Of a stretch of 64,000 nt of DNA, positions 10,069 to 30,758 are shown one piece after another. The notes below the pieces were generated by a model. The model was given only the letters and a program-made list of their open reading frames with translations, was not told the DNA's origin and made no database searches. Origin of the DNA: Rhodococcus sp. AW25M09 (GTDB taxonomy: Bacteria; Actinomycetota; Actinomycetes; Mycobacteriales; Mycobacteriaceae). Position 1 is the stretch's first letter, and each line of letters begins with the position of its first letter. The stretch is from the NCBI RefSeq assembly GCF_000333955.1, contig NZ_CAPS01000051.1, positions 33,375 through 97,374 on the forward strand. The letters run 5' to 3'. Position numbers and translations under genes: made by a program.

Positions 10069-10175
10069 ATCCAAGGCTGAGAAGTTTCTTTACCGAGCGT
10101 TGAACATTCTGGCATCGGTGCTCGTACACCTTCCACGGGCTCGCCTGCCCGATACTCCCACGGAAGGCACACGAG

Positions 10176-12505: not shown

Positions 12506-12536
12506 GGTTAGGTACTTACAGGAAGGACCCGCCACC

Positions 12537-14532: not shown

Positions 14533-15327
14533 ATGGGGGGATCGAAGAAGTCCGCGTTCGCTCCGGCGAGCGCCGCTCTGACACAAGCCGGCAATATCGT
14601 CGAACTGTTCGTCGAGGTGGTTCGCAACACCTTCCGTAGGCCGTTCCAGTTCCGCGAGTTCATCGAGCAGGCCTGGTTCATCGCCAGCGTCACGATTCTG
14701 CCGACGGCGCTCGTCGCCATTCCGTTCGGCGCGGTCGTGGCGCTGCAGACCGGATCGCTCATCAAGCAGCTCGGTGCCGAGTCGTTCACGGGTGCGGCCA
14801 GCGTGCTCGCGGTCATCCAGCAGGGCAGTCCGATCGTGACCGCACTGCTGGTGGCCGGCGCTGCCGGTTCTGCTGTGACTGCAGACCTCGGCTCGCGCAC
14901 CATCCGCGAGGAGATCGACGCCATGCGAGTGCTGGGTATCGACCCGGTACATCGTCTCGTCGTTCCCCGAGTGCTCGCGATGATCCTCGTCGCACTGTTG
15001 CTCAACGGCCTGGTCTCGGTCGTCGGCATCGCCGGCGGCTACTTCTTCAACGTGATCCTCCAGGGCGGCACCCCCGGTGCATATCTGGCGTCGTTCTCGT
15101 TTTTGGCCCAGCTGCCGGATCTGTATGTCGCCGAGGCGAAAGCAGCAATCTTCGGACTCATCGCGGGCATCATCGCCTCCTACAAGGGCCTCAATCCCAA
15201 CCCCGGACCCAAGGGCGTCGGCGAGGCAGTGAACCAGACGGTTGTCATCACGTTCCTGCTGCTCTTCTTCGCCAACCTCATCCTGACCCTGGTCTATCTC
15301 CAGGTCGTCCCAGCGAAGGGAGCGTAA
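14533..15327 (+). CDS. yrbEA: YrbE/MlaE family ABC permease A
   Basis: A 264-residue inner-membrane permease of the MlaE fold. It has an N-terminal interface helix, then five to six hydrophobic helices, with the conserved EIDAMRVLGIDPVHRLVVPR coupling-helix region (about 133-152) that contacts the ATPase. It forms the heterodimeric channel with YrbEB under the MceA-F ring. It starts 5 bases after the mceG stop region and is followed 5 bases later by yrbEB. Confidence 0.94.
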   Translation: MGGSKKSAFAPASAALTQAGNIVELFVEVVRNTFRRPFQFREFIEQAWFIASVTILPTALVAIPFGAVVALQTGSLIKQLGAESFTGAASVLAVIQQGSPIVTALLVAGAAGSAVTADLGSRTIREEIDAMRVLGIDPVHRLVVPRVLAMILVALLLNGLVSVVGIAGGYFFNVILQGGTPGAYLASFSFLAQLPDLYVAEAKAAIFGLIAGIIASYKGLNPNPGPKGVGEAVNQTVVITFLLLFFANLILTLVYLQVVPAKGA

Positions 15328-15332
15328 CCGCG

Positions 15333-16193
15333 ATGACGATCGCAAGAGGTCGCGGTGACCGCACGCTGATGCGCGTCAAGCGCGTCGGCAACGCCCCGCT
15401 CAACGTGCTCGACCGCGCAGGCGAGCAAATGTCGTTCTACCTGCGGGCCATCGGGTGGATTCCCAAGACCGCAGTGCATTACAAGAAGGAGGTGCTCCGC
15501 CTGCTGGCGGAGGTCACCTTCGGCAGCGGTGCGCTCGCCGTCATCGGTGGGACCATCGGCGTGATCGTGATGATGTCCGGCTTCACCGGCATCGTCGTCG
15601 GTCTACAGGGCTATGCAGCCCTCGAACAGCTCGGTAGCTCCGTGCTCACCGGATTCCTGTCCGCGTACGTCAACACCCGTGAGATCGCGCCGATTGTCGC
15701 AGGACTGGCACTCTCGGCCACCGTCGGCTGTGGTTTCACCGCCCAGCTCGGTGCCATGCGAATCTCCGAGGAGATCGACGCGCTCGAGGTGATGGCCGTA
15801 CCCAGCGTGCCGTTCCTCGTGACCACCCGCATGATCGCAGGCTTCGTGGCCGTCATCCCGCTGTACATCGTCGGGCTGTTGGCGTCGTACGTCGCATCCC
15901 GAGGGATCAGCACCGTTTTCAACGGGCAGTCCACGGGGTCCTACGACCACTACTTCAACCTCTTCCTACCTCCGGAAGACGTGTTGTATTCGTTCTTGAA
16001 GGTGCTGATATTCGCCTTCGTCCTGATCATGATCCACTGCTATTACGGCTACCACGCCTCTGGCGGACCTGCCGGTGTCGGCGTCGCAGTGGGCCGTGCC
16101 GTTCGTACCGCGATCGTCACGATCGCCGTACTGGACTTCTTCTTGAGCCTCGCCATCTGGGGCACGACCACCACAGTGAGGGTTGCGGGATGA
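15333..16193 (+). CDS. yrbEB: YrbE/MlaE family ABC permease B
   Basis: A 286-residue second MlaE-type permease. It is longer at the N-terminus (LMRVKRVGNAPLNVLDRAGEQ interface helix), with the EEIDALEVMAVPSVPFLVTTRM coupling region and a hydrophobic C-terminus. Together with YrbEA it makes the transmembrane part of the Mce importer. It overlaps mceA by ATGA (16190-16193), so translation is coupled. Confidence 0.94.
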   Translation: MTIARGRGDRTLMRVKRVGNAPLNVLDRAGEQMSFYLRAIGWIPKTAVHYKKEVLRLLAEVTFGSGALAVIGGTIGVIVMMSGFTGIVVGLQGYAALEQLGSSVLTGFLSAYVNTREIAPIVAGLALSATVGCGFTAQLGAMRISEEIDALEVMAVPSVPFLVTTRMIAGFVAVIPLYIVGLLASYVASRGISTVFNGQSTGSYDHYFNLFLPPEDVLYSFLKVLIFAFVLIMIHCYYGYHASGGPAGVGVAVGRAVRTAIVTIAVLDFFLSLAIWGTTTTVRVAG

Positions 16194-17545
16194 TCGACTC
16201 GCCGTCGCGACTGAAGCGAGTACTCCTCGGTTTGGCGTTCTTCCTGGTGCTCATCCTGTTCCTGGGGTGGAGCATCACGTCCTACAACAAGACGTTCAAA
16301 GATGTGGTGAAAGTCAGCCTCGAAACCGACTCGGTCGGCAACGCGCTGCCGATGAACGCGGATGTCAAGGTGCGCGGAATGATCGTGGGCGAGGTGCGCT
16401 CGGCGTCCACCGTCGACGGCGTCGTGACCTCGCAGCTCGCCATCGATCCGGACAAGGCACCGCTGATTCCGTCGAACGTGACGGCACGGTTGCTTCCCAA
16501 GACACTGTTCGGTGAGCGCTACGTCTCGTTGATCGTGCCCGAGAACGATGCGGCGTCGCCGATCTCCGAGGGCACGGTCCTCAAACAGGACACCAGCGGA
16601 AACGCCATCGAGGTCGGGCAGTTGCTCGACGGCTTGCTTCCACTGCTGCAGGCGATTCCGCCACAGGATCTGGCGAACACCCTCGGGTCGTTGGCGCAGG
16701 GCCTCAGCGGGCGCGGTGAGCAACTGGGCCAGACCATCGACAACCTGACGAACATCGTGTCGGGTCTGAACACGGAGTTGCCGAACATCCAGCAGACGTT
16801 GGTCGGGCTGGCCGACTTCTCGCAGACCTACGCAGACGCGGCACCGGACTTGGTCTCGGCGCTGGACAACTTGCGGACGACGGGCAACACCGTGGTCGAG
16901 CGGCAGTCCAGCCTCGACACGCTGTACGGCTCCCTGACCTCGGCGTCGTACACCACTGCGGACTTTCTGCAGACCAACTCCGAGAACCTGATCGGATTGG
17001 CCGCGAACTCTCGGGAAGCGCTCGAGCTGCTGGCCGAGTTCTCCCCGACGTTCGGCTGCACGTTCACTTATTTCGCTGAAGGTGCCAGGCGCGGAAAAGT
17101 CGTACTCGGTGAGGGCGACGAGTACCCCGGCATCAACGTCTCCGCACCGTTCGTCAACCCGAAGGGTCGTTACTTGCCGAACCAGGACGAGCCGCGCTTG
17201 TTCGACGATCGCGGAGCCACCTGTTTCGAGCCCGCGGCGCCGGGGGAGTTCTTCCCGCAGTATCCGGGAGGCTCGATCAACGACGGTTCCTACCAGGTGC
17301 CGACCCGGAACCCGGGCCCGCAGGTGATCGAAGGACAGGGACCACCGAAGTCTGCCCAGAGTTCCATCGTTCCCGCCGTCTCCGCATCCGCGCAGCCGGC
17401 GAGCTACGAGGGCTCCGACTTCGAGCGCGACACTCTGGCCGTGATCTACGGACAGGCGAGTGGTGTTGCACCGGACAGTATTCCGTCGTGGGCGGCCGCT
17501 ATCGGCGCACCGGCACTGAGAGGAGTGGAGGTGACCGTGCCATGA
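16190..17545 (+). CDS. mceA: Mce family protein MceA
   Basis: A 451-residue protein. It has one N-terminal TM anchor (about 9-27), an MCE domain at about 36-115 (VKVRGMIVGEVRS), a long helical region (about 140-290) that contributes to the lipid tunnel, then a Pro-rich C-terminal extension. It is the first of six paralogues forming the hexameric periplasmic conduit. Such systems import cholesterol, fatty acids or mycolic acids in mycobacteria; the substrate here is not determined by sequence. Start and stop overlap neighbours by four bases on each side. Confidence 0.93.
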   Translation: MIDSPSRLKRVLLGLAFFLVLILFLGWSITSYNKTFKDVVKVSLETDSVGNALPMNADVKVRGMIVGEVRSASTVDGVVTSQLAIDPDKAPLIPSNVTARLLPKTLFGERYVSLIVPENDAASPISEGTVLKQDTSGNAIEVGQLLDGLLPLLQAIPPQDLANTLGSLAQGLSGRGEQLGQTIDNLTNIVSGLNTELPNIQQTLVGLADFSQTYADAAPDLVSALDNLRTTGNTVVERQSSLDTLYGSLTSASYTTADFLQTNSENLIGLAANSREALELLAEFSPTFGCTFTYFAEGARRGKVVLGEGDEYPGINVSAPFVNPKGRYLPNQDEPRLFDDRGATCFEPAAPGEFFPQYPGGSINDGSYQVPTRNPGPQVIEGQGPPKSAQSSIVPAVSASAQPASYEGSDFERDTLAVIYGQASGVAPDSIPSWAAAIGAPALRGVEVTVP

Positions 17546-18609
17546 GAGGCCTTCTCGCGCCGATCATCAAGTTGGTCGTGTTCGCCGTGATCACGATCAC
17601 TGCTACGGCCACCCTTGCCTTCACCATCGCCAATTCCAGCGGCGGCGGCGGCACCAAGTTCTCGGCTGTGTTCACCGACGTCACGTCTCTCAACGAGGGC
17701 GACGAGATTCGTATCGCGGGCGTTCGTGTCGGCCAGGTCGACAAGATCGAGATCGCCAACGAGCGCGAAGCCAAGGTGGACTTCACTCTGAGCAGTCGTG
17801 ATTGGCTCCCGGCCAGTTCGACGGCGACCATCCGATTCCGGAACCTGGTGGGCCAGCGCTACATCGCCATCGAGCAGGGTTCGGGAGACCAGGGTCGGAA
17901 GATCACCGACGGTGCCACCATTCCGTTGGAGCGGACCAAGCCTGCGGTGAACCTGACCACGCTCTTCGACGGCTTCCGCCCGCTGTTCACCACGCTCAGC
18001 TCCGATGACGTCAACAAGCTGTCGTACCAGATCATTCAGGTGTTCCAGGGGGAGTCGGGCACCATCAATGAACTGGTCACCAATACGGCGACCCTGACCA
18101 ACACCGTCGCCGACAAGGATCAGGTCATCGGGCAGGTCATCACCAATCTGAACAACGTGTTGGAGACGGTGAACCAGAACGACGGGCAGCTCGACAGCCT
18201 GATCGTCAACACGCAGCAGCTCGTCTCGGGCCTGTCGGCCGACCGTGGTGTCGTCGGCTCCGCCGTGACGTCGCTCGCCGGCCTGACCAACGCGACCGCC
18301 GACCTGCTCGAGCCGACCAGGCCGTCGATCCAGGGTTCGGTGACTGCGTTGAACACGTTGGCCGAGACAGTCAACCGACGAAGCGACGACGTGGACACGG
18401 TCCTCGGAATTCTGCCCGTCAAGCTCGAGAAGCTCATTCGCACGGCCCAGCAGGGATCCTGGTTCACCTTCTATCTGTGCGGTATCGACATCGTCGCCGG
18501 ACCGGGTAGTTCGCCGAATCTGAATCTGCCGACCGGGCTGCCGACCGTCAACCAGCCGCTGTACACGAACTCCGCAGCGCGTTGCAAAGCTGGGGGGATC
18601 AAGCAATGA
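17542..18609 (+). CDS. mceB: Mce family protein MceB
   Basis: A 355-residue Mce paralogue. It has an N-terminal anchor helix (about 6-25), an MCE domain about 32-115 (RIAGVRVGQVDKIEI), a coiled or helical tunnel region to about 300, and a short tail with Cys residues. ATG 17542 is chosen for its ATGA overlap with the mceA stop; the open frame upstream runs inside mceA. It functions as one of six subunits of the conduit. Confidence 0.92.
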   Translation: MRGLLAPIIKLVVFAVITITATATLAFTIANSSGGGGTKFSAVFTDVTSLNEGDEIRIAGVRVGQVDKIEIANEREAKVDFTLSSRDWLPASSTATIRFRNLVGQRYIAIEQGSGDQGRKITDGATIPLERTKPAVNLTTLFDGFRPLFTTLSSDDVNKLSYQIIQVFQGESGTINELVTNTATLTNTVADKDQVIGQVITNLNNVLETVNQNDGQLDSLIVNTQQLVSGLSADRGVVGSAVTSLAGLTNATADLLEPTRPSIQGSVTALNTLAETVNRRSDDVDTVLGILPVKLEKLIRTAQQGSWFTFYLCGIDIVAGPGSSPNLNLPTGLPTVNQPLYTNSAARCKAGGIKQ

Positions 18610-19604
18610 AATCTCGTCGTAGTCCGGCCACCATCGGTGCGCTCGGTATCGCAATCATCCTGCTCGCCACGATGTCGGTCTTCTTTCTCGACCGGCTCCC
18701 GATCATCGGTGCGGGTTCGGTGTACACCGCCGAGTTCAGCGAGGCAGCAGGGCTCAAGCCGCCCAACGAGGTCCGTATCGCGGGCGTGAAGGTCGGCAAG
18801 GTCACCGATGTGCGTCTCGACGGCGACCGGGTGCTCGTGGACTTCACGGTCAAGGACGCCTGGGTCGGCAACGAGTCGCGAGCGGCCATCGCCATCAAGA
18901 CTGTGCTGGGGCAGAAATATCTGGCGCTCGACCCGAGCGGTCCGGAGACGTTGAGCCCCAAGGACCCGATTCCGCTCGAGCGCACCACGTCCCCGTACGA
19001 CGTGATCGACGCGTTCTCCGCTGCGGCCTCGACCATCAGCGACATCGACACCGATCAGCTGGCGACGAGCATGCGGACCCTGTCCGAGGCGTTCTCCGAG
19101 ACGCCTGCGAACATCCGTGCCTCGCTCGACGGTGTGACTCGGTTATCGCAGACCGTGGCCAGCCGTGACGAGGAACTGAAGAAGCTGTTCGAGGCCACCG
19201 GCGAGACCTCGAAGGTGCTGGCCGACCGCAACGAGCAGTTCAACCAACTGATCACCGACGCGGGCCCGCTTCTCGAAGAGCTCAACAATCGGCAGCAGGC
19301 CATCTCGCAGCTGCTCACCGGCACTCAGCGAGTGTCGCAAGAGCTGACCGGCCTGGTTCGCGACAACGAGGCCACCATCAACCCGATGTTGCAGCAGCTC
19401 AACGGCACCATCGAGATCCTGCAGCGCAACAACGACAACCTCGACCGTGCGCTGAAGCTGTACGAACCGTTCATTCGGCTGTACACGAACCTGACCGGCA
19501 ACGGCCGGTGGATAGACATCACGCTGGCAAACCTCACACCGCCCGGAGTTCCGTTGATACCTGGTTACCGCCAGCCCTCGCTCGATACGTTGGCGGGGAA
19601 CTGA
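18606..19604 (+). CDS. mceC: Mce family protein MceC
   Basis: A 332-residue Mce paralogue. The N-terminus is KSRRSPATIG followed by an anchor helix, an MCE domain with RIAGVKVGKVTDVRL, and a helical region to about 300. ATG 18606 overlaps the mceB stop (18607-18609). It lacks the Pro-rich C-terminal tail found in some mycobacterial MceC proteins. Confidence 0.92.
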   Translation: MKSRRSPATIGALGIAIILLATMSVFFLDRLPIIGAGSVYTAEFSEAAGLKPPNEVRIAGVKVGKVTDVRLDGDRVLVDFTVKDAWVGNESRAAIAIKTVLGQKYLALDPSGPETLSPKDPIPLERTTSPYDVIDAFSAAASTISDIDTDQLATSMRTLSEAFSETPANIRASLDGVTRLSQTVASRDEELKKLFEATGETSKVLADRNEQFNQLITDAGPLLEELNNRQQAISQLLTGTQRVSQELTGLVRDNEATINPMLQQLNGTIEILQRNNDNLDRALKLYEPFIRLYTNLTGNGRWIDITLANLTPPGVPLIPGYRQPSLDTLAGN

Positions 19605-20887
19605 TGACAGACACGCAGACAGCACCGAGAAGCAAGAACAAGCTCGCGCTGATCGCCGTCGTCGTGACCGTGGCGCTCGTCCTCGCGGTCGCCGGCTGGT
19701 GGCTGTTCACCAGGGCCGGAACGACCAAGATCACCGCCTACTTCGACAAGTCGATCGGCATCTATTCCGGCTCGGAGGTGCGCGTGCTCGGCGTCAAGGT
19801 CGGCACGGTCGACTCGGTCACGCCGCAGGGCGAAGACGTGGAGGTCATTCTTCGCGTCGACCGTGGGGTCGACATTCCTGTGGACGCCAAGGCCGTCCAG
19901 GTCACCCCGTCGCTCGTCGCCGACCGCTACGTCCAGCTCTCGCCCGTCTACACCGGCGGCGACACCATGGCCGACGGCGCGACGATCGGTCGCGATCGCA
20001 CCGCAACACCCGTCGAGGTCGACGAGCTGTACAAGTCCATCGACGACCTGTCCACCGCCCTCGGTCCGGACGGCGCGAACAAGGACGGCGCTCTCACCGA
20101 TCTGGTCAACACCGGTGCAGCCAACCTCGACGGCAACGGTGAAGCGTTGGGCAACAGCATCACCCAGCTCTCGGCCGCCGGTCGAACGTTGAGTGACTCG
20201 CGCACCGACGTGTTCGACACGATCAAGAACCTGCAGACGTTCGTCAGCGCCTTGGCCGTCAACGATCAGCAGGTACGCAACTTCAACACCCAGTTGGCCG
20301 ACCTGACCGGTTTCCTGTCGGGGCAGCGAGAGGACCTCGGAGCTGCACTCCAACAGCTGTCGGTCTCGCTCGGCGACGTGGCGACGTTCGTCGCGGACAA
20401 CCGGACCCAACTGACCGATGCCGCGAACGGTCTCACGGTTCCGACGCAGACACTCGCCGACAACCGCGAGCAGCTGGTGCAAACGCTCACGTTGCTGCCG
20501 CTGGCCATCAGCAACCTGGTGAACGCGTACGACGCCGAGTCGGGAACGCTCGCCACGCGCGCCAATCTCCAGAACGAGACCCAGGATCCGCTCGGCACCG
20601 TGTGCAAGCTCCTCGATCTCGGCAAGCTCGTTCCCGGCGATCCGCGCTTCGAGGCCCTCGGTGCGCAGATTCAGCCGATCATCGATCAGTGCGCCAACAT
20701 CACCACGATGATCCAGGCCCCGATCACCGACCAGAACCGGATCGTGCTGCCGTTCGGTGTTCTCACCAACGACATCGAGCAGAACGTATCCGTTCCCGGC
20801 ACCGTGCCTGGCGTCGTCTCGCCCAGGCTCGGAAACAGCTCGATGCCCGGACTGGAGCAGTCGTACATCGGAGGTGGGGGACAGTGA
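19604..20887 (+). CDS. mceD: Mce family protein MceD
   Basis: A 427-residue Mce paralogue. It has a Lys-rich start (SKNKLALIAV) leading into an anchor helix (about 12-32), an MCE domain with VRVLGVKVGTVDSV, and long helical repeats to about 330. ATG 19604 overlaps the mceC stop by one base (TGATG). Its stop is overlapped by the GTG of mceE. Confidence 0.92.
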   Translation: MTDTQTAPRSKNKLALIAVVVTVALVLAVAGWWLFTRAGTTKITAYFDKSIGIYSGSEVRVLGVKVGTVDSVTPQGEDVEVILRVDRGVDIPVDAKAVQVTPSLVADRYVQLSPVYTGGDTMADGATIGRDRTATPVEVDELYKSIDDLSTALGPDGANKDGALTDLVNTGAANLDGNGEALGNSITQLSAAGRTLSDSRTDVFDTIKNLQTFVSALAVNDQQVRNFNTQLADLTGFLSGQREDLGAALQQLSVSLGDVATFVADNRTQLTDAANGLTVPTQTLADNREQLVQTLTLLPLAISNLVNAYDAESGTLATRANLQNETQDPLGTVCKLLDLGKLVPGDPRFEALGAQIQPIIDQCANITTMIQAPITDQNRIVLPFGVLTNDIEQNVSVPGTVPGVVSPRLGNSSMPGLEQSYIGGGGQ

Positions 20888-22185
20888 GAACCTCTGTGAA
20901 TCGGAATCGAGCTCGAGTGAAGCGTTCTTTGGTGGTCGGAGCCGGTGCGTGCGTGGTGGCGCTGTCGGCCGGAGCATGCTCGTCGGCCGGCATCTACGCG
21001 ATACCGCTGCCCGGCGGTGCCGACGTCGGTGAGAACCCGTTGAACCTGACGGTGCAGTTCGACGACGTACTGGACCTCGTCCCGCAGTCGACCGTGAAGG
21101 TCGACGGCGTCTCGGTCGGCCGCGTCGACTCGATAACGGTCCCGAACGACGGCTGGACCGCCGACGTCAACGTCATCTTGAATTCCGACGTCGACCTTCC
21201 GGCCAACGCGATCGCATCGGTGCAACAGACCAACCTGCTGGGCGAGAAGTTCGTGCAGCTCTCGGCACCTCCTGGCGACGAGGAAGCAGCGCGTCTGCAG
21301 GACGGGGCCACGATCCCGCTCGATCGCACCCGCCATGCCACCGATATCGAACAGGTACTCGGTGCGCTCTCGCTGCTGCTCAACGGCGGCGGTGTCGGGC
21401 AGCTCTCGCCGATCGTCAAGGAACTGAGCACGGCGTTCGACGGTCGCGAAGGCAGAACCAAAGAGCTTCTGCAGCAAGCGAACACCCTCATCGACGGCCT
21501 CAACCAGCAGCGTGACGACATCACCCGCGCCATCGACGGTCTCGACACACTGAGCGGGCGCGTCAACTCGCAGACCGACAAGATCGACGGGGTGCTGAAG
21601 GACCTGCCGATCGCCACCGAGGTTCTCGAGCAGCAGCGCCCGCAGCTGACCGAGATGCTCGGAGCGCTCGACCGTCTCGGAGCCGTCGGCACCGACGTGA
21701 TCGACCGTTCCAAGGACGATCTCATCGCGGACCTGCGGGCACTACGCCCCACGCTCCAGGCCCTGGCCGATTCGGCGGACGACGTGGTGAGCTCGCTCGC
21801 GGTGATCCCCACCCTGCCGTTCGCGGACGGTACCGAGAAGATCATCGAGGGCAACTCGGCGAACCTGTTCCTTTCGCTCGACCTGTCGATCGGAACTGCG
21901 TTGCGCAACTTCGGCGTCGGGGAGGGCGATCCGGTCTACATCCAGCCCAAGTACGGCAACACGCTGCCCGTCGTCGACCCGTCGAATCCGTACTACAACG
22001 GCAACGGACCGCGCCCGGGTTGGCCGACGATCTCGCTGCTGCCGTTGCCGCCGATCATCCCGTCACCGGTTCCCGGTCCGGGTGCACCTGCGAACGAGCA
22101 GGCAGCGGCGGCCGCCGCGCCCGCACCGGCCGATCCGTTCGCACCGTTGAACGATCTGCTCGAGCGATTCGGAGTTGGACAGTGA
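20884..22185 (+). CDS. mceE: Mce family lipoprotein MceE (LprK-like)
   Basis: A 433-residue Mce paralogue. It has a lipoprotein signal in place of a TM anchor: basic start, hydrophobic core, lipobox SAGAC near residue 30. The MCE domain (VKVDGVSVGRVDSI) follows, then helical sequence and a Pro/Ala-rich tail. In mce operons the fifth subunit is characteristically a lipoprotein, so the order mceA-F is assigned with confidence. GTG 20884 overlaps the mceD stop. Confidence 0.93.
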   Translation: MRTSVNRNRARVKRSLVVGAGACVVALSAGACSSAGIYAIPLPGGADVGENPLNLTVQFDDVLDLVPQSTVKVDGVSVGRVDSITVPNDGWTADVNVILNSDVDLPANAIASVQQTNLLGEKFVQLSAPPGDEEAARLQDGATIPLDRTRHATDIEQVLGALSLLLNGGGVGQLSPIVKELSTAFDGREGRTKELLQQANTLIDGLNQQRDDITRAIDGLDTLSGRVNSQTDKIDGVLKDLPIATEVLEQQRPQLTEMLGALDRLGAVGTDVIDRSKDDLIADLRALRPTLQALADSADDVVSSLAVIPTLPFADGTEKIIEGNSANLFLSLDLSIGTALRNFGVGEGDPVYIQPKYGNTLPVVDPSNPYYNGNGPRPGWPTISLLPLPPIIPSPVPGPGAPANEQAAAAAAPAPADPFAPLNDLLERFGVGQ

Positions 22186-23429
22186 GATCGAGACTGGTTC
22201 GCATTCAATTGGTCCTCTTCGTCGTGGTCGCTGTGGTGGGGTTGGTCTATGTCGGTGCCAAGTACGTGCGACTGGACAACATGCTCGGCTTCGGGCAGTA
22301 CCAGGTCGATCTGAACCTCGCCGATTCCGGTGGCATCTTCTCCAACGCCGAGGTCACCTACCGAGGTGTCCCGGTGGGAACCGTCGGAGATCTGGAACTG
22401 ACGGAAGACGGGATCCGAGTCGCGCTCATGCTCGACGACGGCGGCCCGGACATCCCAGCCGACACCAAGGCCGTCGTGGCCAACAGGTCGGCCATCGGTG
22501 AGCAGTACGTCGACCTGCAACCCGAGACCGACCAGGGCCCGTTCCTGGTCGACGGTTCGCAGATCGCGGAGGCCGACACCACTACACCCGTGCCGGTGGA
22601 ACAGGTTCTCGCCAACGCGAACACGCTGGTTCGGTCGGTACCGCTGGATACGTTGACGCGAGTCGTCAACGAGCTCGGTGTGGCGTTCGACGGAAAGGGC
22701 ACGGATCTTGCGTCTCTCGTCGATTCGCTCGGGAACATCTCCGAGGCAGGCAACGAGGCGCTGCCGCAGACGCTCGCGCTGGTGCGCGACGCGGTGCCAG
22801 TGCTGAACACGCAGTCCGAGCAGTCGGATCTGATTCGGCAGTTCAGCACCAGCTTGGATGAGGTGACGGCTCAGTTGAAGTCCAGCGATCCGGACATCCG
22901 TCGCCTGATCGACACCGGCACAGCGGCGGGCGATCAGCTCGGTGGTCTCATCACCGATGCCGGTCCGGCTCTGACGACCGATATCAACAACCTAGCCCTG
23001 GTTGCTGCGCAGGCCGAACCCCGGTACGTTGCGCTTCGTCCGTTCCTGACGTTCCTGCCTGCCCTCGGTGCCGGCATCTCCACCATCGTCCCGGACGACG
23101 GCACGATCCATCAGGGCCTGTTGCTCGAGACCAACAACCCGCCCCCGTGCACGGTGGGCTACGAGGGCAGCCAGGCGATCCTCGACGAGGAGAAGCGCAA
23201 GAACCCGAACTTCGATCCGACTCGGGAGAATTACCCGCTGAACCTCGACGCGAACTGCGCCACACCGCAGGGCAGCGTCACCGGTGTTCGTAGTGCGAAC
23301 CGCATCGTGTTCGCCGATCCGGATGTGCCGCAGCCGTGGGACCTCAAGCCCAAGGTCGATCCCGAGAAGTTGAACCTCAACCCGATCGCCACCCAGTTGG
23401 CACCGCTGATCGGCGTCACGCCGAAGTAG
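22182..23429 (+). CDS. mceF: Mce family protein MceF
   Basis: A 415-residue Mce paralogue. It has a short basic start, anchor helix (about 5-24), MCE domain (VTYRGVPVGTVGDLEL), helical region and a C-terminal globular part with Cys residues. GTG 22182 overlaps the mceE stop. It is the last of the six conduit subunits; 84 bp separate it from the first Mce-associated gene. Confidence 0.92.
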   Translation: MRSRLVRIQLVLFVVVAVVGLVYVGAKYVRLDNMLGFGQYQVDLNLADSGGIFSNAEVTYRGVPVGTVGDLELTEDGIRVALMLDDGGPDIPADTKAVVANRSAIGEQYVDLQPETDQGPFLVDGSQIAEADTTTPVPVEQVLANANTLVRSVPLDTLTRVVNELGVAFDGKGTDLASLVDSLGNISEAGNEALPQTLALVRDAVPVLNTQSEQSDLIRQFSTSLDEVTAQLKSSDPDIRRLIDTGTAAGDQLGGLITDAGPALTTDINNLALVAAQAEPRYVALRPFLTFLPALGAGISTIVPDDGTIHQGLLLETNNPPPCTVGYEGSQAILDEEKRKNPNFDPTRENYPLNLDANCATPQGSVTGVRSANRIVFADPDVPQPWDLKPKVDPEKLNLNPIATQLAPLIGVTPK

Positions 23430-23513
23430 TGGAATCGGTGGAACTGCTGCTCAGCACTATCGTCGGGCCGAGAGTGGTTCGGCCGGATATTACCGAGTAG
23501 TAGGGTGGAAAGT

Positions 23514-24206
23514 GTGAACTCGAGCACCGAAGCCCTGGAGTCCTCAGCGACTCCAGGGCGTAACAAGACCGCGAAAATCCTCTTTGCCGTCGTCACGGTG
23601 ATCGCCGTGGCGGCCCTCGCGGCGGCCGTGTTCTTAGGATACGGCTGGGGCAATGCGTTGCTGAGTCAGAAGCCCACCGCGGACACCCGCGACGCGGCTC
23701 TCACCGGCGCTCAGCAAGCGGCCGTCAACCTCAACACGGTCGACGCGGCCACCATCGATCAGTCGTTCGACAACATGAAGTCGTCCATCACCGGCGACCT
23801 GATGCTCAACGACCTCGAGCAGACGCGGTCGGGTATCACCGACCAGGTTCGTCAGTCCGGTGCCAAGAGCGACGCCGAGGTGCTGCACGGAACGCTGACC
23901 GAGCTGAGCACGGACGAGAACACCGCCACCGCTCTCGTGGTCATCGCGACGACCACCACCTGGCCCGACCGCATCGAGCGCAGCAAGCTGACGATGAGCC
24001 TGGCCATGGAAGAGATCGACGGGGTGTGGAAGACCAACAAGGTCGACCCGATCGGTTCGCGGATCTCGCTCGACAACCCCAGCACAAACCCCGTCATCCC
24101 GAACGAACCGGGCGGCCCCGCCGATCCGAATGCCGCCGATCCGAATGCGGCCGACCCCGGTACGGACGCGACGCCTGCTCCCCAGCCGGACTCCGGCGGT
24201 AACTGA
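23514..24206 (+). CDS. Mce-associated membrane protein 1
   Basis: A protein of about 230 residues. It has a cytoplasmic N-terminus, one TM helix (about 23-45) and an extracytoplasmic domain with the alpha+beta pattern of Mas proteins (VDAATIDQSFDNMKSSITGD, then beta strands with VVVIATTTTW). It ends in a tail with two Asp-Pro-Asn-Ala-Ala repeats. GTG 23514 is preferred to GTG 23505 because AGGG lies about 9 bases before it. Mas proteins stabilise or assist Mce complexes, as described for Mycobacterium OmamA and related proteins. Confidence 0.85.
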   Translation: MNSSTEALESSATPGRNKTAKILFAVVTVIAVAALAAAVFLGYGWGNALLSQKPTADTRDAALTGAQQAAVNLNTVDAATIDQSFDNMKSSITGDLMLNDLEQTRSGITDQVRQSGAKSDAEVLHGTLTELSTDENTATALVVIATTTTWPDRIERSKLTMSLAMEEIDGVWKTNKVDPIGSRISLDNPSTNPVIPNEPGGPADPNAADPNAADPGTDATPAPQPDSGGN

Positions 24207-24263
24207 GAATCCGGCAGTGGTGTTTTCCGTCTGTACCGAAGTGAGTTTCGAAGGAGTTCTGTA

Positions 24264-25106
24264 GTGCCTCCCCAGCGTCGCAAGATCGTTCCACCCACCA
24301 CCACCAGCAAGGTTCGACGCAAGGTGGCCGGCACCGGGAAGCCGACTGCAGCCGACACCGACACGGCGTCGACCGACGCCGAGGGATCGGCGGCCGCCGA
24401 GTCGCAGGCCATCGCGACGCCGCCGCCGACCGAGCCGGTTCTCGACAAGCCCGCAACCGACAAGCCTGTGACCGAGAAGCCGTCACTCGAGAAGCCTTCG
24501 GTCGACAAGTCTGCAACCGACAAGTCTGCAACCGACAAAACTGCAACCGAGAAGCCTTCGGTCGACAAGCCTGCTGCCGACTCCATCGCAAGCGCCTCGT
24601 CCTCCGGACCGGTGTCGGGTATCGGCTACAAGCACGTGATCGTCGTCGCGGTGATTGCCGTGGTGCTCGGCGCGTTCGCTGCCGTTGCCGCGTTCAAGCC
24701 GTTCGCCACGATCGACAATGCGGCGTGGGTGGATTCCGCGGCCACCCAGGAGGTCACTTCGGCTGCGACCGATGCGCTGCAGACCCTGTACACGTACAAG
24801 GCCGAGACGATCGATGCCGATTTCGATGCGGCCCGCGCTGTTCTCAATCAGTCGATGCTCGAGGAGTTCAACTCCACCGCTGAGACAACCAAATCTGCTG
24901 TGGTGCAGACGAGTACGGGTACCGAGGCCATGGTGACGGACATCGGTGTCACGCGGTTGGAGGACGACAAGGCCGAGCTGCTCGCCAATGTGAACATCAG
25001 CGCCACGCAGAACGGCGTCGCGTCGGGCAGCGCCGAGGGCCCGTTGACGGTGAACATGGAGAAGGTCGACGGCTCCTGGAAGCTCTCGGCCATCGACGAT
25101 CAGTAG
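24264..25106 (+). CDS. Mce-associated membrane protein 2 with N-terminal Lys/Glu/Pro repeats
   Basis: A 280-residue protein. A disordered N-terminal region (1-about 110) contains about nine tandem 5-residue units of the type D/E-K-P/S-x-T/V. A TM helix (about 122-142) and a Mas-type extracytoplasmic domain follow, homologous in layout to the preceding gene. GTG 24264 has AAGGAG 8 bases before. It ends the mce operon; a terminator follows 27 bp later. Confidence 0.85.
   Translation: MPPQRRKIVPPTTTSKVRRKVAGTGKPTAADTDTASTDAEGSAAAESQAIATPPPTEPVLDKPATDKPVTEKPSLEKPSVDKSATDKSATDKTATEKPSVDKPAADSIASASSSGPVSGIGYKHVIVVAVIAVVLGAFAAVAAFKPFATIDNAAWVDSAATQEVTSAATDALQTLYTYKAETIDADFDAARAVLNQSMLEEFNSTAETTKSAVVQTSTGTEAMVTDIGVTRLEDDKAELLANVNISATQNGVASGSAEGPLTVNMEKVDGSWKLSAIDDQ
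24441..24585 (+). repeat. 15-bp tandem repeats in Mas-2 coding region
   Basis: Imperfect 15-bp units such as GACAAGTCTGCAACC and GAGAAGCCTTCGGTC are repeated about nine times in frame, coding a charged 5-residue period in the cytoplasmic tail of the second Mas protein. Confidence 0.8.
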
Positions 25107-25132: not shown

Positions 25133-25172
25133 CCCCGTTCGACGCAGAAGCCCTGCGTGGACGGGGTTTTTT
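25133..25172 (+). terminator. Rho-independent terminator of the mce operon
   Basis: CCCCGTTC-GACGCAG pairs with CTGCGT-GGACGGGG around a short AAGCC loop and is followed by six T. It is the cleanest intrinsic terminator in the window and closes the mceG-to-Mas operon. Confidence 0.93.
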
Positions 25173-25190: not shown

Positions 25191-25321
25191 CTGTCACCGA
25201 CTTCGGGCCGAGCTACCATCGCGTTTGCGTCCTGGTTGGGACGAGCCCTGGTTGTTCGGGACAACCATTTTCACGCTCGGACAGCCAGGGGTGGATCCGA
25301 TGAAAACGGAGCATGCTGGTC
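25191..25321 (+). promoter_or_regulatory. Promoter and leader of the fused aminotransferase gene
   Basis: CTGTCA (25191-25196), a 17-bp spacer and TACCAT (25214-25219) form a plausible housekeeping promoter. The leader of about 95 bases contains the hairpin GGTTGT-TCGGG-ACAACC (25250-25266) and two copies of CCTGGTTG. No known riboswitch is recognised. Confidence 0.4.
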
Positions 25322-27898
25322 ATGACTGACACAACTATCGATTTTTCCGTGCTGGAATCCCGGTCCGGTCGATCGGGCTTTGCCGAGCACGTCAATCCCG
25401 AACTGTATCGCTTGTTGTCTGCGCTGAACCTGGATCGCGAGTACGTGCGCGGCGACGGGACGGTCCTGTTCGACGCCTCGGGCCGACGCTATCTCGACTT
25501 CGCGGGGGCGTACGGAGCCCTTCCGTTCGGGCACGGTCCCACTCCGATCTGGCAGGCGGTCAACGACGTTCGCTGCAGCGGGGAGGCAATTTTCGTGCAG
25601 CCCTCGGTGCTGAGCGCGGCCGGTGAATTGGCAGATCGGTTGGGGCGCATGGCCCCAGAGGGGTTGACGCGAACGACGTTCGTCAACAGTGGTACCGAGG
25701 CGACGGAGGTCGCGCTCAAGATCGCCCGAGCGCACACCGGGCGGCTGGGTGTGCTGACCACCGCGAACAGCTTCCACGGTAAGACCCTCGGTGCCTTGTC
25801 TGCGACGGGAAACATCAAGTATCAGAACGGTTTCGGCGCTCCGGTCGAGGGATTCGATCATATCGAGTTCGGGGATTCGGATGCGCTCGACGCGGCCCTG
25901 GCGGCAGCACCCGGGCATTATGCAGTGTTTCTGGTGGAGCCGATTCAGGGTGAGGGTGGAGTGGTGTGCCCGCCCGACGGATACCTGCGCCGCGTGCGGG
26001 AGATCTGCGATCGGCACGGGGTGCTCATGGCACTCGACGAGGTGCAGACCGGGCTCGGCCGGACGGGCCGGATGTTCGCAGCCGAGCACGACGGCGTGGT
26101 GCCGGACATTCTGACTCTCGCCAAGGCGCTCGGCGGCGGAATCGTGCCGGTGGGCGCGGTGCTGAGCCGCCCGGAGTTGGTGGGGGAGAGCTTCGCGCTA
26201 CGACACACGTCGACCTTCGCGGGGAACGCGTTGGCTGCACGGGTGGGTATCGCGGTACTCGACGAACTGACTCGGGATGGCTGCGCGGTGGTGGAGAATG
26301 CGGCGGTACTCGGCCATCGGCTGAAGAACGATCTGAGCGCGCTGGCCGAGAAGTATCCGTCGGTGGTCACCGAGGTACGCGGCCGCGGACTGTTGCTGGG
26401 CATCGAACTCACCGCGGACGTGAACTTCGTCGGACGGCAGTCGCTGCTCGGATCGATCGCAGATCAGCACAACCTCTCCGCGGTGATCTGCTCGTACCTG
26501 CTCAATGTCGAGGGGATCCGAGTGGCTCCGACTCTGTTCGGCAACAGGGTGATTCGCATCGAGCCGCCGCTCACGGTGTCCGGGGTGCAGTGCTCGCGTC
26601 TGGTCGCCGCGCTGGACCGGGCGTTGGGCTACGCGGCAGCCGGAGACATGGACGGATTGTTCGGGCACCTGTTGGGCCGTCCGACCGTCGCCACGCCGCC
26701 TGCCCTCGCGGCGCTGCGTCCCGGGCGTACCCCCGACATCGCGGTACGGCCCACCGATCGACGTTTCGCGTTCATCGCGCATCCCCTCGATCTCGGGTTC
26801 TTCGCGGCATTCGACCCGGCGCTCGAGGTGTTCGACGACTCCGAGCGACAGGACTTGCTCGAGCGGTTCGCGGCGTCGACGTCCGAGCTCGAACCCGCGT
26901 CGTTCGTCATCGGCAGCGGCCGGGTCGTCGGAGGCGGGGACGCGACGGCGCACGGTGATCTGATAGGGCTGCCGTACACCTCTCAGCAGTTGCTGCAGCT
27001 GCCGACCCAGCGTGCGCTGGCAGTGGTGGGCGGTGCCGTCGAACTGGCGATCTCACGCGGTGCAACGGTCGTCGGGTTGGGCGGTTATTCATCGGTGATC
27101 ACCGGGAACGGGCTGGGTCTCGGAGTAACAGCTCGGCCGATCACCACTGGCAACACGTTCACCGCCGCGGCGAGTCTGCGGGCTGTTCGACGCGTGTGCC
27201 GTGAACGCGGTATCGATGTCGGGCGGGCGAGGGTGACGATTCTCGGCGCTGCCGGAGCGATCGGTCGGACCATCGGCAGGCAGTTGGCCGGCGAAGTCGG
27301 GAGTATTGCGTTGGTCGGTAGGCAGGGTGAGAGTTCGGTCATCGCTCCGAAGTTGTGGGCCGCGGCGCAGGAGATGGTGGCCGGCGCGAGGGCCGGCTCC
27401 GGCTCGGGGGATCTCGCGGTTGCTGCCGATACGGTCGGTGGTGACTTGGATGATCTGATCAGGTCGCAGCACATCGAGTTCTTCACCGATCCCGTTGTTG
27501 CGGTGAAGGATTCGTTGATCGTGATCGCTGCGACATCTGCACCGCATGCGCTGATCGATCCGACGGACCTGATGGAGGGTGCCATCGTGTGCGATGTTGC
27601 GCAGCCCCCGAACATCGGCCGTGACGTGCGAGGTGAGCGGCCGGACGTGACGGTGTTCGACGGCGGCATCGTTCGGGTGCCGTCGGGTTCGGATTTCGGG
27701 TTGACCTACGGGTTGGCTCCCGGCCTGACGTACGCCTGCATGGCCGAGACGATGCTGATTGCGCTGTCGGGAGAGTTCGGACTCCGCAGCATCGGTACCA
27801 GTCTCGACGGTGACAGCGTCGAGAGATTGGGCGAGCTGGCCGACGTCCACGGGTTCGCACTCGCGGAAGCCACGCGCTGGCGCGAAGGCAGTCAGTAG
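25322..27898 (+). CDS. Class III aminotransferase fused to acyl-ACP-reductase-like domain
   Basis: An 858-residue two-part enzyme. Residues about 15-435 are a PLP fold-type I class III aminotransferase with YLDFAGAYGALPFGH, a Gly/Thr phosphate site (NSGTEATE), DEVQTG, and the Schiff-base Lys268 in LAKALGGG. Residues about 480-835 resemble long-chain acyl-ACP reductase (AAR): VGLGGYSSVI, TTGNTFTAA, the NADPH loop GAAGAIG (642-648), and an ACMAETML motif whose Cys806 aligns with the AAR nucleophile. The expected chemistry is acyl thioester to enzyme-bound aldehyde to primary amine, by inference. ATG 25322 is favoured since GGAG lies 10 bases before; ATG 25313 is too close to it. The gene stands alone downstream of the mce terminator and overlaps a convergent MMPL gene by 7 bp. 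Confidence 0.8.
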   Translation: MTDTTIDFSVLESRSGRSGFAEHVNPELYRLLSALNLDREYVRGDGTVLFDASGRRYLDFAGAYGALPFGHGPTPIWQAVNDVRCSGEAIFVQPSVLSAAGELADRLGRMAPEGLTRTTFVNSGTEATEVALKIARAHTGRLGVLTTANSFHGKTLGALSATGNIKYQNGFGAPVEGFDHIEFGDSDALDAALAAAPGHYAVFLVEPIQGEGGVVCPPDGYLRRVREICDRHGVLMALDEVQTGLGRTGRMFAAEHDGVVPDILTLAKALGGGIVPVGAVLSRPELVGESFALRHTSTFAGNALAARVGIAVLDELTRDGCAVVENAAVLGHRLKNDLSALAEKYPSVVTEVRGRGLLLGIELTADVNFVGRQSLLGSIADQHNLSAVICSYLLNVEGIRVAPTLFGNRVIRIEPPLTVSGVQCSRLVAALDRALGYAAAGDMDGLFGHLLGRPTVATPPALAALRPGRTPDIAVRPTDRRFAFIAHPLDLGFFAAFDPALEVFDDSERQDLLERFAASTSELEPASFVIGSGRVVGGGDATAHGDLIGLPYTSQQLLQLPTQRALAVVGGAVELAISRGATVVGLGGYSSVITGNGLGLGVTARPITTGNTFTAAASLRAVRRVCRERGIDVGRARVTILGAAGAIGRTIGRQLAGEVGSIALVGRQGESSVIAPKLWAAAQEMVAGARAGSGSGDLAVAADTVGGDLDDLIRSQHIEFFTDPVVAVKDSLIVIAATSAPHALIDPTDLMEGAIVCDVAQPPNIGRDVRGERPDVTVFDGGIVRVPSGSDFGLTYGLAPGLTYACMAETMLIALSGEFGLRSIGTSLDGDSVERLGELADVHGFALAEATRWREGSQ

Positions 27899-30063
27899 TC
27901 GACCGGGTCCGGGGTCCGCGCCACTCGGTGTACCCCGGACCCGTCGTCGTCGGTGGATCCCGATCGTCTCGGGGTGGGATGGAGCCACCAGTTCGCATGT
28001 CCCATCAGTGTGACGAGGGCAGGCACCAGCATCATTCGCACGATGGTGGCGTCGATGAGGAGCCCGACGATGATGCCGACGCCGACGAGTCGCATCATGG
28101 ACAGTTCCGACAACGAGAAGAACGCGGTGACGGTGATCAGCAGTAGCGCAGCGGCTGTCACGACACGTCCGGTGCGCGCTGCTCCGATGCGTACCGCTTC
28201 TCGGGTGGTGGCACCGTTGTCATGGGCCTCGACGATGCGCGAGAGCAGAAAGATCTCGTAGTCGGTGGACAGGCCGAACACCACTGCCATGATGAGGATG
28301 CTCATCGTGGACTGCAGCGGCCCAGGCGTGACGCCGATCGCTCCGGCACCGTTGCCGTCGTGGAAGATCCAGGTGAGCACGCCGAACGTGGCACCCAGGC
28401 TGACTATCGCCATCGCAATCGCTTTGAGGCTGAGCACGATCGAACGGAACGCCAGTGTCGTCATGGTGAACGTGGCCAACACCATGATGGCCAACATCCA
28501 CGGAATGGTGGAGTAGATCGCAGCGATGCCGTCCTCGCTCGCTGCGGTGCTGCCGCCCACTCGCAGCGTGGTCCCGGTGGGGGCGGGAATCGACCTGATC
28601 CGGTCGAGAGTGGCGAGTGCACCCGGGGTGCGGTCGGCCGAGGTCATGATGGCGTCGACCACGGCCAGATTGTCGGCGGCACCGCCGGGAATCACTGCCG
28701 CGACACCGTCCGCGCGGCCGATGGCAGCGGTGACTTCTGCGATGGCATTCGGGCTCGGCGGTGCACCGGTATCCGATTCGATGAGGACGGTGACGCCGGT
28801 GTTGGTGAGCGTGAAATCGGTGAACAACTTCTCTGTGGCGATGCGGGCAGGTGCGCCCCGAGGCAGGCCCGTGTGGTCGAGGTCTCCCAGCGCGACCCCC
28901 GAGACAGGGGCGCTGAGCACGGCCAGCACACCGATGATGGCGACCGCAACGAGGATCGGCCTGCGCATCACCCGGTCGGCGACAGTGCCCCAGAACTTCT
29001 GCGCCCGCGCGTCGCCGCGGTCGATCGCGCCCGTGCGCCAACTCAGCGAATCGATGCGGGGTCCGAGGAGGGCGAGCGCGGCCGGAAGGGCGGTCAGCGA
29101 GATCACCGCGGCGACGGCGACAGCGGCAATGCCGCCGAAGCCCAGCGAGCGGATCATCGCCTGCGGGAAGACCAGCATGCCGATGAACCCACAGACCAGC
29201 AACAGGGCCGAAAACGCCACGGTGCGGCCGGCCGTGGACATCGTGCGGCGCACCGCAGCTGCCGTTCCGCGGCCGCTGCGAACCTCCTCGCGACACCGCG
29301 TGAGCACGAACAGGCTGTAGTCGACGGCCATTCCCAGTCCGACGAGGGACGCGATATTGGTGGCGAATACCGACACCTCGGTGACGCTGTTCAATGCTCT
29401 GAGAACGGTCAGTGAGGCCAGCACGCTGAGGCCGCCGATCACCAGAGGAATCGCTGCGGCGACGAGTCCACCGAAGATGAGCAGCAGCAGCACCAGCAGA
29501 ATGGGGAAGGTGATGGTCTCGGCTCGCACCAGATCTGCGCGTGCTTGCTCGTTGTACGCGTCGGCGATGGCCGAGAATCCACCGAACTGCACGGTCACGC
29601 CGTCGATCGTCAACTGCTCGCGCAGGTCCTGATAGGTCTTGATGCGCCGATCCTCGTCGCCGGTCAGAATCAGTACGGCGAGGGCCGACTGCCCGTCCGA
29701 CGAACGCATGCCGGGGGCGAAGGTATCGGGCACCGTCCAGTAGGTGATGGGATCGCGAGCCAGTGCGGACTCGTCGATGGTGCTCAGGCCGGCTGTTACG
29801 GTCTCGCCGATCTGGTCGACCGTTCGTCCGTCCGTCGGGGTGTAGACCACCGCGATGTCCGGAACGTCACGACCGAAGCGGGATTCGACCAGCGCGTCGA
29901 CCCGGGCCGACTCGCTACCCGGGTCGCTGTAGCCGCCGAGACTGAGCTCGTCGACCACGCCCAGTCCCCATACACCCGAGACGAGAACGGCCGCGACGAC
30001 CGTCGTCAGTACCCACCGCGCACGCGTGATGACGAAGTCGACGACGGGCGCACCCCTGTTCAC
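27892..30063 (-). CDS. MMPL/RND family transporter
   Basis: A 723-residue exporter with the two-fold RND layout. It has an N-terminal helix (about 13-32), a periplasmic domain, the GLGMAVDYSLFVLTRCREE helix, a second periplasmic domain, and GLSTDYEIFLLSRI in the second half. The GTG at 30063 reads NRGAPVVDFVITRARW, a typical MMPL start. The open frame runs on to 30258 but that upstream part has no membrane character. It lies back to back with the rpoB promoter region and ends convergently into the aminotransferase fusion. The substrate is unknown; lipid export is typical. Confidence 0.88.
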   Translation of the reverse strand: MNRGAPVVDFVITRARWVLTTVVAAVLVSGVWGLGVVDELSLGGYSDPGSESARVDALVESRFGRDVPDIAVVYTPTDGRTVDQIGETVTAGLSTIDESALARDPITYWTVPDTFAPGMRSSDGQSALAVLILTGDEDRRIKTYQDLREQLTIDGVTVQFGGFSAIADAYNEQARADLVRAETITFPILLVLLLLIFGGLVAAAIPLVIGGLSVLASLTVLRALNSVTEVSVFATNIASLVGLGMAVDYSLFVLTRCREEVRSGRGTAAAVRRTMSTAGRTVAFSALLLVCGFIGMLVFPQAMIRSLGFGGIAAVAVAAVISLTALPAALALLGPRIDSLSWRTGAIDRGDARAQKFWGTVADRVMRRPILVAVAIIGVLAVLSAPVSGVALGDLDHTGLPRGAPARIATEKLFTDFTLTNTGVTVLIESDTGAPPSPNAIAEVTAAIGRADGVAAVIPGGAADNLAVVDAIMTSADRTPGALATLDRIRSIPAPTGTTLRVGGSTAASEDGIAAIYSTIPWMLAIMVLATFTMTTLAFRSIVLSLKAIAMAIVSLGATFGVLTWIFHDGNGAGAIGVTPGPLQSTMSILIMAVVFGLSTDYEIFLLSRIVEAHDNGATTREAVRIGAARTGRVVTAAALLLITVTAFFSLSELSMMRLVGVGIIVGLLIDATIVRMMLVPALVTLMGHANWWLHPTPRRSGSTDDDGSGVHRVARTPDPVDY

Positions 30064-30758
30064 GTCGTCCAGCCGGGCGTGACGTGCCACGAGCGGAGCC
30101 CGTCGTGAACCTCGACGCGGACTCTGAATCCGGCGTCGACCGCTGCCACCGTGACCATGTCGTCCCCCCGCGAGACGTGAATCGAGTGCTGCGTGAATAT
30201 GCCTGTGGCACTGAAGAAAAAGCGTCCGACCGTACATCCGGTCACGCGACGACGCCACCCCCGTTGCGACAGAAGAAATACAATCAGACCTCGGGCTCGA
30301 TTGCTAGACCTCCGACGGATTCGCGCGGACCTCTTGACGAAGGAAGGCGCAGGGGTCACTCTTGTCGTTGAAGGAGCACCCCGTGGTGACGACCGCACTC
30401 GATCGTCTTCCGCAGCTTCCAGTTCGCTGTCGTTTGCTGTTCGACGCGCTGCCGCTTTCTGGTCCGACACGCTGCTGCCGACTCGACGCGCGAATCGATC
30501 CCGGGTGCTACTTTTGATGCCCCCGTTGCGCTCTGCGCACATTTGGGGTATCTTTGGACGTTGCGCTGGCTGCCTCCTGTCCACCTCTCGATCGCTGTTA
30601 CCCGAAGCCTCGTTTTCGGGCCGCTGTGATGGGGATTCGGTCTGGTTGCGACCAGCCGAAATTCGCCCCACATATAGCAAACAGATACAGCGGCGGTCGC
30701 CATGTCGTTTAGATTGACAGAACGGCGCGACCCGCGTGAGGTGCTGGAAGGACGCATC
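30064..30758 (+). promoter_or_regulatory. rpoB: Long upstream region and promoter of rpoB-rpoC
   Basis: About 695 bp with no convincing gene. The best promoter is TTGCGC (30526-30531), a 17-bp spacer and TATCTT (30549-30554), giving a leader of about 200 bases to the TTG start. Another -10-like TACAAT lies at 30279-30284 without a -35. Small open frames here lack ribosome sites. Long untranslated regions before rpoB are known in mycobacteria. Confidence 0.5.

What the first reader, a model, noticed from the sequence alone, without database searches (positions are those of the whole stretch)
25322..27898. Fusion of a class III aminotransferase to an acyl-ACP-reductase-like domain: a possible one-protein route from acyl thioester to amine
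Residues about 15-435 carry a full class III aminotransferase (Lys268 Schiff-base motif). Residues about 480-835 carry motifs that I match by eye, in order, to cyanobacterial long-chain acyl-ACP reductase: VGLGGYSSVI, TTGNTFTAA, GAAGAIG, and ACMAETML with Cys806 at the thioester-accepting position. Prodigiosin PigE couples a reductase and a transaminase too, but with the domains in the reverse order and, as far as I know, a different reductase. The aldehyde could be passed within one protein, making fatty amines or amino-lipids. The gene stands alone after a terminator.
Basis: partly seen in the sequence, partly recalled or inferred. Interest (0 to 1): 0.82.

Follow-up and report, generated by a model that had tools for sequence, protein, structure and literature searches.

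The report
Fused acyl reductase–transaminase, orphaned in Rhodococcus
This Rhodococcus gene encodes one protein with an aminotransferase half and an acyl-carrier-protein-reductase half, predicted to turn a carrier-bound fatty or polyketide chain into an amine; enzymes built this way are already known in other bacteria, but this one has likely lost the polyketide synthase found fused to or beside the related genes examined.

Summary

What I add: the window protein sits in a well-supported actinobacterial branch. All five non-Rhodococcus members whose neighbourhoods I examined are joined to, or directly behind, type I polyketide synthases; one is a single 3499-aa polypeptide. In Rhodococcus the gene is in 29 of 37 species held, follows an mce lipid-transport operon, and is under purifying selection where measured, but has no cognate PKS beside it here. 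Ten of the 29 carry the marker gene of a different PKS block. It therefore looks like an orphaned polyketide-release enzyme, now likely fed by fatty-acid synthesis. That step is inference.

The parts
25322..27898 (+). Fusion gene, 858 aa: class III aminotransferase + acyl-ACP-reductase-like domain
25436..26626 (+). Aminotransferase class III domain (residues 39-435)
   Evidence: Pfam PF00202, E 1.3e-87; best Foldseek match of the whole model is PigE's aminotransferase domain 4ppm
26123..26125 (+). Lys268, PLP Schiff-base lysine
   Evidence: position; invariant in the 32 fusions aligned
26627..26761 (+). Linker between the two domains (about residues 436-480)
   Evidence: between Pfam end and start of the AAR structural match; low-pLDDT block at residues 461-470
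26762..27892 (+). AAR-like reductase domain (residues 481-857)
27245..27265 (+). GAAGAIG, nucleotide-binding loop (residues 642-648)
   Evidence: its three motif glycines invariant in A1 and A2
27737..27739 (+). Cys806, aligned with catalytic Cys294 of Synechococcus AAR
   Evidence: invariant in A1 and A2
25133..25172 (+). Intrinsic terminator between the mce operon and the fusion gene
   Evidence: fold -30.9 kcal/mol, z -4.9, then six T; found in 8 of 9 other loci of the sub-lineage
25308..25311 (+). GGAG, likely ribosome-binding site of the fusion gene
   Evidence: read from sequence; CGGAG kept in front of the start in the 20 related loci printed
14533..25106 (+). mce operon with two MlaE permeases, six MlaD/Mce proteins and two small downstream genes; neighbour, not shown to be part of the pathway
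   Evidence: Pfam; synteny
27892..30258 (-). Convergent MmpL-family transporter overlapping the fusion gene's end by 7 nt (its own start is uncertain); neighbour, role in export is a guess
   Evidence: PF03176 on 27895-30027; ortholog in 17 of 37 species of the genus

Best explanation
The protein joins a class III aminotransferase to an acyl-ACP-reductase domain, and it is predicted to move an acyl chain from a carrier protein onto Cys806, reduce it to an aldehyde with NAD(P)H, and convert that aldehyde to a primary amine at the PLP bound to Lys268. Shown here: the two domains, the aligned active-site residues, the predicted AAR fold of the reductase half, and a place in a branch whose examined members outside Rhodococcus are tied to type I polyketide synthases. 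Inferred: the reaction itself, direct hand-over of the aldehyde between the halves, and the orphan state. On this reading the Rhodococcus enzyme lost its own PKS and now likely takes fatty acyl chains from fatty-acid synthesis (acyl-ACP, less likely acyl-CoA), making a long-chain amine of unknown use.
For: Domains and residues. The aminotransferase half is 57.6% identical to, and the whole protein 46% identical to, P0101. I take P0101 to be TsFusion of Thermaerobacter subterraneus: the source names that species, and its Cys815 matches the position given in the paper. That paper's abstract reports transaminase activity of its fusions on aldehydes (PMC10829540). PtTamH, same order, with TamA makes C12 amine from C12 acid via acyl-ACP (PMC9594044). 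PKS link: in a 54-row tree of both domains the window lies in a 20-row branch (99/96). Five of 5 non-Rhodococcus members with examined context are PKS-linked: G180, 3499-aa PKS with this pair at its end; Pseudarthrobacter, KS-AT-ACP upstream; G381, G276 and G653, PKS directly upstream. Carrier link outside the branch: Paraburkholderia phymatum has carrier domain, aminotransferase and reductase in one chain. Selection: dN/dS 0.08-0.12 in both halves in the three groups that could be computed. Orphan: none of 12 ketosynthase matches of the own genome lies on the window's contig. Ketosynthases of the PKS block seen near the gene in some species (three compared) are not specially related to the offloader PKSs (37-45%, against 47-55% among four of the five).
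Against: No activity is shown for this protein. PtTamH's reductase half worked only with its own ACP partner TamA, not with acyl-CoA. PigE reduced a thioester in cell lysate but not when purified. For the four fusions of PMC10829540 the passages I saw report only negative alcohol-dehydrogenase tests of the reductase half. No ACP, acyl-activating enzyme or amine-using enzyme was recognised next to the gene in the window. Of the three arginines that hold the NADPH phosphate in AAR (R189, R193, R314; PMC7089970), R189 has a match, R667; R193 lies past the aligned stretch and R314 falls on Thr826 by eye. The orphan-from-PKS step rests on five contexts; eight other rows of the branch are bare proteins whose context I did not see. 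The G276 ketosynthases stand apart from the other four (42-51%).
Confidence: 0.78

Rival explanations
1. The enzyme is the release step of the nearby PKS block (PKS, class I/II aminotransferase resembling alpha-oxoamine synthases, KAS III, MmpL, GNAT-like gene) and is a remnant where that block was lost.
For: The block lies next to the fusion gene in several related species; an ortholog of its class I/II aminotransferase is in 10 of 29 species with the fusion and 1 of 8 without; the window keeps the MmpL.
Against: 19 of 29 species keep the fusion without that marker gene, and dN/dS is low in the 12 of these that were computed; G007 has the marker and MmpL but no fusion; the block's KS is about as far from the offloader PKSs (37-45%) as the genome's own Pks13-like KS is (39-48%); its PKS and aminotransferase genes are on the other strand.
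Confidence: 0.12
2. It runs backwards in the cell: lipid amines or diamines, perhaps imported by the neighbouring Mce system, are deaminated to aldehydes and oxidised to acyl thioesters for catabolism.
For: Steady neighbourhood with an mce operon, a lipid transporter family; transamination is reversible, and the fusions of PMC10829540 also accept amines (abstract).
Against: All five examined close relatives sit with PKSs that build chains; AAR is described as a reducer; the genus shares the order around this locus, so proximity may be plain inheritance.
Confidence: 0.08
3. The reductase half works on a small or functionalised acyl group (aminoacyl, hydroxyacyl, branched polyketide), so the product is a short or cyclising amine such as a tetrahydropyridine, not a fatty amine.
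For: KecF, same architecture, is proposed to make koreenceine tetrahydropyridines from a type II PKS chain (PMC6498172); the class III half is close to putrescine and ornithine-type aminotransferases.
Against: No tailoring genes were recognised nearby in the window; PtTamH prefers a C12 aldehyde.
Confidence: 0.2

Closest known systems
TsFusion / TmFusion / TfFusion / PpKTFusion (natural transaminase fusions, PMC10829540)
   Same: Same two domains in the same order, AAR Cys294 equivalent; P0101, taken here as TsFusion, is 46% identical over residues 20-849 and 57.6% in the aminotransferase half
   Different: Thermaerobacter/Thermincola/Pseudomonas; PpKTFusion lies in a type II FAS/PKS cluster; Rhodococcus is not mentioned in the paper's main text (0 occurrences)
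PtTamH, tambjamine YP1 (PMC9594044)
   Same: Same order, PLP lysine, GxxGxxG and catalytic Cys; makes a fatty amine from acyl-ACP
   Different: Works with TamA in a pigment cluster; no such partner seen here. Its sequence was not obtained, so no identity is given
PigE, prodigiosin (4ppm; PMC8341465)
   Same: Homologous in both halves: NCBIfam PigE model 516 bits; its reductase half is the best PDB sequence match
   Different: Order reversed (reductase first). Two PigE-order proteins fall outside the 42-row main aminotransferase-first group (95/89); a distant six-row aminotransferase-first group lies further out under the midpoint root
KecF, koreenceine (PMC6498172)
   Same: N-terminal aminotransferase, C-terminal COG5322/AAR-like domain, proposed PKS chain release as amine
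   Different: Type II PKS cluster in Pseudomonas; here an actinobacterial branch tied to type I PKS, and the window gene itself has none beside it
Cyanobacterial acyl-ACP reductase (6jzq/6jzu/6jzy)
   Different: Single domain, hands aldehyde to a deformylating oxygenase; TIGR04058 score 56.5 against a cut-off of 449.7

Membership tests
Aminotransferase-AAR fusions (PtTamH/KecF/TsFusion kind) | N-terminal class III aminotransferase with PLP lysine | tested here: met
   Pfam E 1.3e-87; Lys268 invariant in the 32 fusions aligned
Aminotransferase-AAR fusions (PtTamH/KecF/TsFusion kind) | C-terminal AAR-like reductase in the same chain, after the aminotransferase | tested here: met
Aminotransferase-AAR fusions (PtTamH/KecF/TsFusion kind) | GxxGxxG loop and cysteine equivalent to AAR Cys294 | tested here: met
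   GAAGAIG 642-648; Cys806 on Cys294
Aminotransferase-AAR fusions (PtTamH/KecF/TsFusion kind) | Acyl thioester to amine activity | not testable with these tools
   needs purified protein
PigE (NF053554) | Score over the curated cut-off of 850 bits | tested here: not met
   516.1 bits
PigE (NF053554) | Reductase first, aminotransferase second | tested here: not met
   order is the reverse
Cyanobacterial AAR equivalog (TIGR04058) | Score over the cut-off of 449.7 bits | tested here: not met
   56.5 bits
Cyanobacterial AAR equivalog (TIGR04058) | AAR fold | tested here: met
Putrescine aminotransferase (TIGR03372) | Score over the cut-off of 658.65 bits | tested here: not met
   267 bits
PKS release enzyme | Fused to or directly behind a PKS module | tested here: not met
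   no PKS gene beside it in the window; no ketosynthase match on its contig. Met in 5 of 5 examined non-Rhodococcus relatives of the branch

The most novel reading that the evidence does not exclude
A whole branch of aminotransferase-AAR cassettes ends type I polyketide assembly lines, up to a single 3499-residue polypeptide that builds a chain and would release it as an amine. In Rhodococcus the cassette was cut loose from its PKS and became a genus-wide stand-alone maker of a long-chain lipid amine, an envelope lipid class that my few searches on these bacteria did not turn up, perhaps handled by the neighbouring Mce or MmpL transporters.
Probability: 0.3. Interest if true: 0.68.

Novelty: new member of a known kind. 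Interest (0 to 1): 0.42.

Why it matters
It places a known amine-making architecture in Rhodococcus, in a gene found in 29 of 37 species held of the genus, and gives a testable product class (a lipid or polyketide amine). The PKS-linked sister proteins suggest AAR-type reduction plus built-in transamination as a chain-release route for type I PKSs, beside the known separate reductase domain and transaminase (described in PMC6498172 and PMC10829540). They are also candidates for one-enzyme fatty-amine biocatalysis.

Tried and rejected

PtTamH's own sequence was not obtained: meant to reach it, matched 5531 of 7997 candidates at E <= 0.001 (not all need be fusions); 120 are listed and none is named TamH. 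The carmabin TAD paper was not found in the held library, for AAR, found nothing, and that paper was then read by its id. Paper searches on the fusion kind; with Rhodococcus or Nocardia: 0 papers; 2,133 papers, 15 listed, no title on this enzyme; 28 papers, 12 listed, PtTamH's among them. Rows dropped: six of 28 loci (L010, L026, L028, L029, L047, L048) failed my motif filter; searches show they have the cysteine, with CFAET in five and ATGN instead of TTGN in G008 (L010). The group 'sister lineage without block' therefore has no dN/dS, G017 was not fetched, and mean dS is 1.2-1.4 in the block group, so its ratio is rough. In one search, three long rows (P0054, P0055, L145) were left out.

Full report

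PigE does not use a different reductase. Couturier et al. (PMC8341465, whole text) identify PigE's N-terminal half as AAR-like with Cys296 and give evidence from cell lysate that PigE reduces a thioester; purified PigE did not. PtTamH (PMC9594044, parts 1-3 of 5) has exactly the window's order. With its partner TamA it converts C12 acid via C12-ACP to C12 amine, using NADH and not NADPH, with L-Glu as donor; it did not use C12-CoA. Prout et al. (PMC10829540, part 1 and passages) describe four more such fusions and map AAR Cys294 onto each. KecF (PMC6498172, passages) is the same architecture in a type II PKS cluster. P0101, which I take to be TsFusion from its species name and its Cys815, is 46% identical to the window protein. 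So the architecture and the proposed reaction are known; this is a new member.

DISTRIBUTION. In the window's genus 29 of 37 species held have the gene: 14 at 91-100% and 15 at 65-67% identity in the reductase half. In a sample of the family it is 13 of 201 (nine of those from the genus) and in a sample of the class 15 of 394 (own genome included), several of these weak partial matches. Among the 80 genome-contig loci kept from a scan with the reductase alone, 15 are fusions in this order, five have an aminotransferase match as a separate gene in the same locus, and 60 show the reductase only in the DNA held. One of the 15 (L062) has the aminotransferase part split between frames. Plasmid records give same-order fusions in Paraburkholderia, Haematobacter and Leisingera, and PigE-order proteins in prodigiosin-type clusters of Methylocystis and Pseudoalteromonas xiamenensis.

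TREES. Separate quick trees of the two halves and a joint careful tree of 54 rows broadly agree. The window protein lies with Rhodococcus (100/100), then with P0034 and G180 (99/94), within a 20-row branch (99/96). The two PigE-order rows group with four loci where the two enzymes are separate genes (99/98), outside the 42-row main aminotransferase-first group (95/89). A distant aminotransferase-first group of six rows lies further out under the midpoint root, so the tree does not say which order is older. Rows of the 20-row branch with examined context outside Rhodococcus: G180, where the pair is the end of a 3499-aa PKS with desaturase, P450, AMP-binding and MmpL-like genes behind it; Pseudarthrobacter enclensis, KS-AT-ACP directly upstream; G381 and G276, two PKS proteins upstream; G653, whose fusion is nearly identical to Nocardia puris P0035, KS-AT directly upstream. 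That is 5 of 5; eight further rows (P0034, P0036-P0042) are proteins without context here. The five were found by the reductase alone, not by PKS content.

RHODOCOCCUS CONTEXT. By coordinates an ortholog of the last mce gene lies within about 2.5 kb upstream of the fusion in 28 of 29 species; in G036 it is about 21 kb away. The 15 genus loci with the main fusion fetched show genes of this operon in front (in L046 only the small gene w21 was called). As the order is shared across the genus, this may be inheritance, not function. An MmpL ortholog (68-100% identity) of the window's convergent transporter is in 17 of 37 species, 16 of them with the fusion. A block marked by a class I/II aminotransferase (alpha-oxoamine-synthase-like by my recall) is present in 10 of 29 species with the fusion and in 1 of 8 without. 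Its reducing PKS was Pfam-scanned in two genomes (G025 and G003), KAS III in one; the GNAT-like gene scores under Pfam's cut-offs. G007 has the marker and MmpL, no fusion and no remnant of it. Three of the block's ketosynthases are 37-45% identical to those of the offloader PKSs, about as far as the own genome's Pks13-like one (39-48%); four of the five offloader genomes give ketosynthases 47-55% identical to each other, while G276 stands apart at 42-51%. So the block is unlikely to be the ancestral partner. The own genome's 12 ketosynthase matches include none on the window's contig. 'Pks13-like' is my label from size and layout.

SELECTION. Mean pairwise dN/dS is 0.08 (aminotransferase) and 0.09-0.10 (reductase) in the window's lineage, with or without MmpL (six genomes each), and 0.12 in eight block-bearing sister species, where dS is above 1 and the ratio rough. 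Sister species without the block could not be computed. Both halves are therefore kept, also in the window's lineage where no PKS block is near.

MECHANISM. Shown: domains, aligned residues, predicted fold, branch. Inferred from assayed relatives: ping-pong transfer of the acyl group to Cys806, hydride reduction, transamination at Lys268. Untested: the acyl donor, chain length, NADH or NADPH, and channelling. Of the three AAR arginines that bind the NADPH phosphate, R189 matches R667, R193 lies past the aligned stretch and R314 falls on Thr826 by eye; PtTamH is NADH-specific, so NADH is at least as likely. The orphan reading (a PKS-release cassette that lost its PKS and now takes fatty acyl chains) follows from the tree plus context and is the least certain step.

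VERDICT. A true and correctly read fusion, but of a published kind. The new content is its place in a type I PKS-linked branch and its genus-wide orphan state in Rhodococcus.

Noticed in passing
L198:4942-11112 (G682) and open frames of 1872-2107 aa in 27 of 148 genomes of genus g22, taken as Nocardia: One such protein (2057 aa, the only one scanned) reads as aminotransferase, AAR-like reductase, PPDK_N, PEP-utilizer and a thymidylate-kinase-like end: an amine maker fused to what looks like a PigC/TamQ-type condensing enzyme (that likeness is recalled).
   Followed up: partly
L054 (G042), 1517-12693: A distant fusion of this kind sits among an NRPS (C-A-PCP), a PPDK/PEP-utilizer/PCP protein and a second PPDK protein.
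   Followed up: partly
L148:11683-14625, Paraburkholderia phymatum pBPHY01: Carrier-protein domain, aminotransferase and reductase in one chain.
   Followed up: partly
L145:11959-16146, Leisingera sp. M527 plasmid: Aminotransferase, reductase and AMP-binding domain in one 1395-aa chain, followed by an MMPL transporter gene.
   Followed up: partly
P0055 (1447 aa) and P0047 (1260 aa): AMP-binding domain in front of the aminotransferase-reductase pair, and a GNAT domain in front of it, respectively.
   Followed up: partly
window 3079-8753: A second likely lipid cluster in front of rplJ: NAD_binding_4 reductase, phosphatidylserine-decarboxylase-like protein, a 384-aa protein without Pfam match, MmpL.
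   Followed up: no
L055 (G025), 9403-12162 minus strand: A second, distant fusion (920-aa open frame) in a species that also has the main one.
   Followed up: no
window 25300-25329: A 9-codon open frame whose stop overlaps the fusion's start (ATGACTGA). The overlapping TGA is absent in L037 and in the 11 sister-lineage loci printed, so it is probably not functional.
   Followed up: partly
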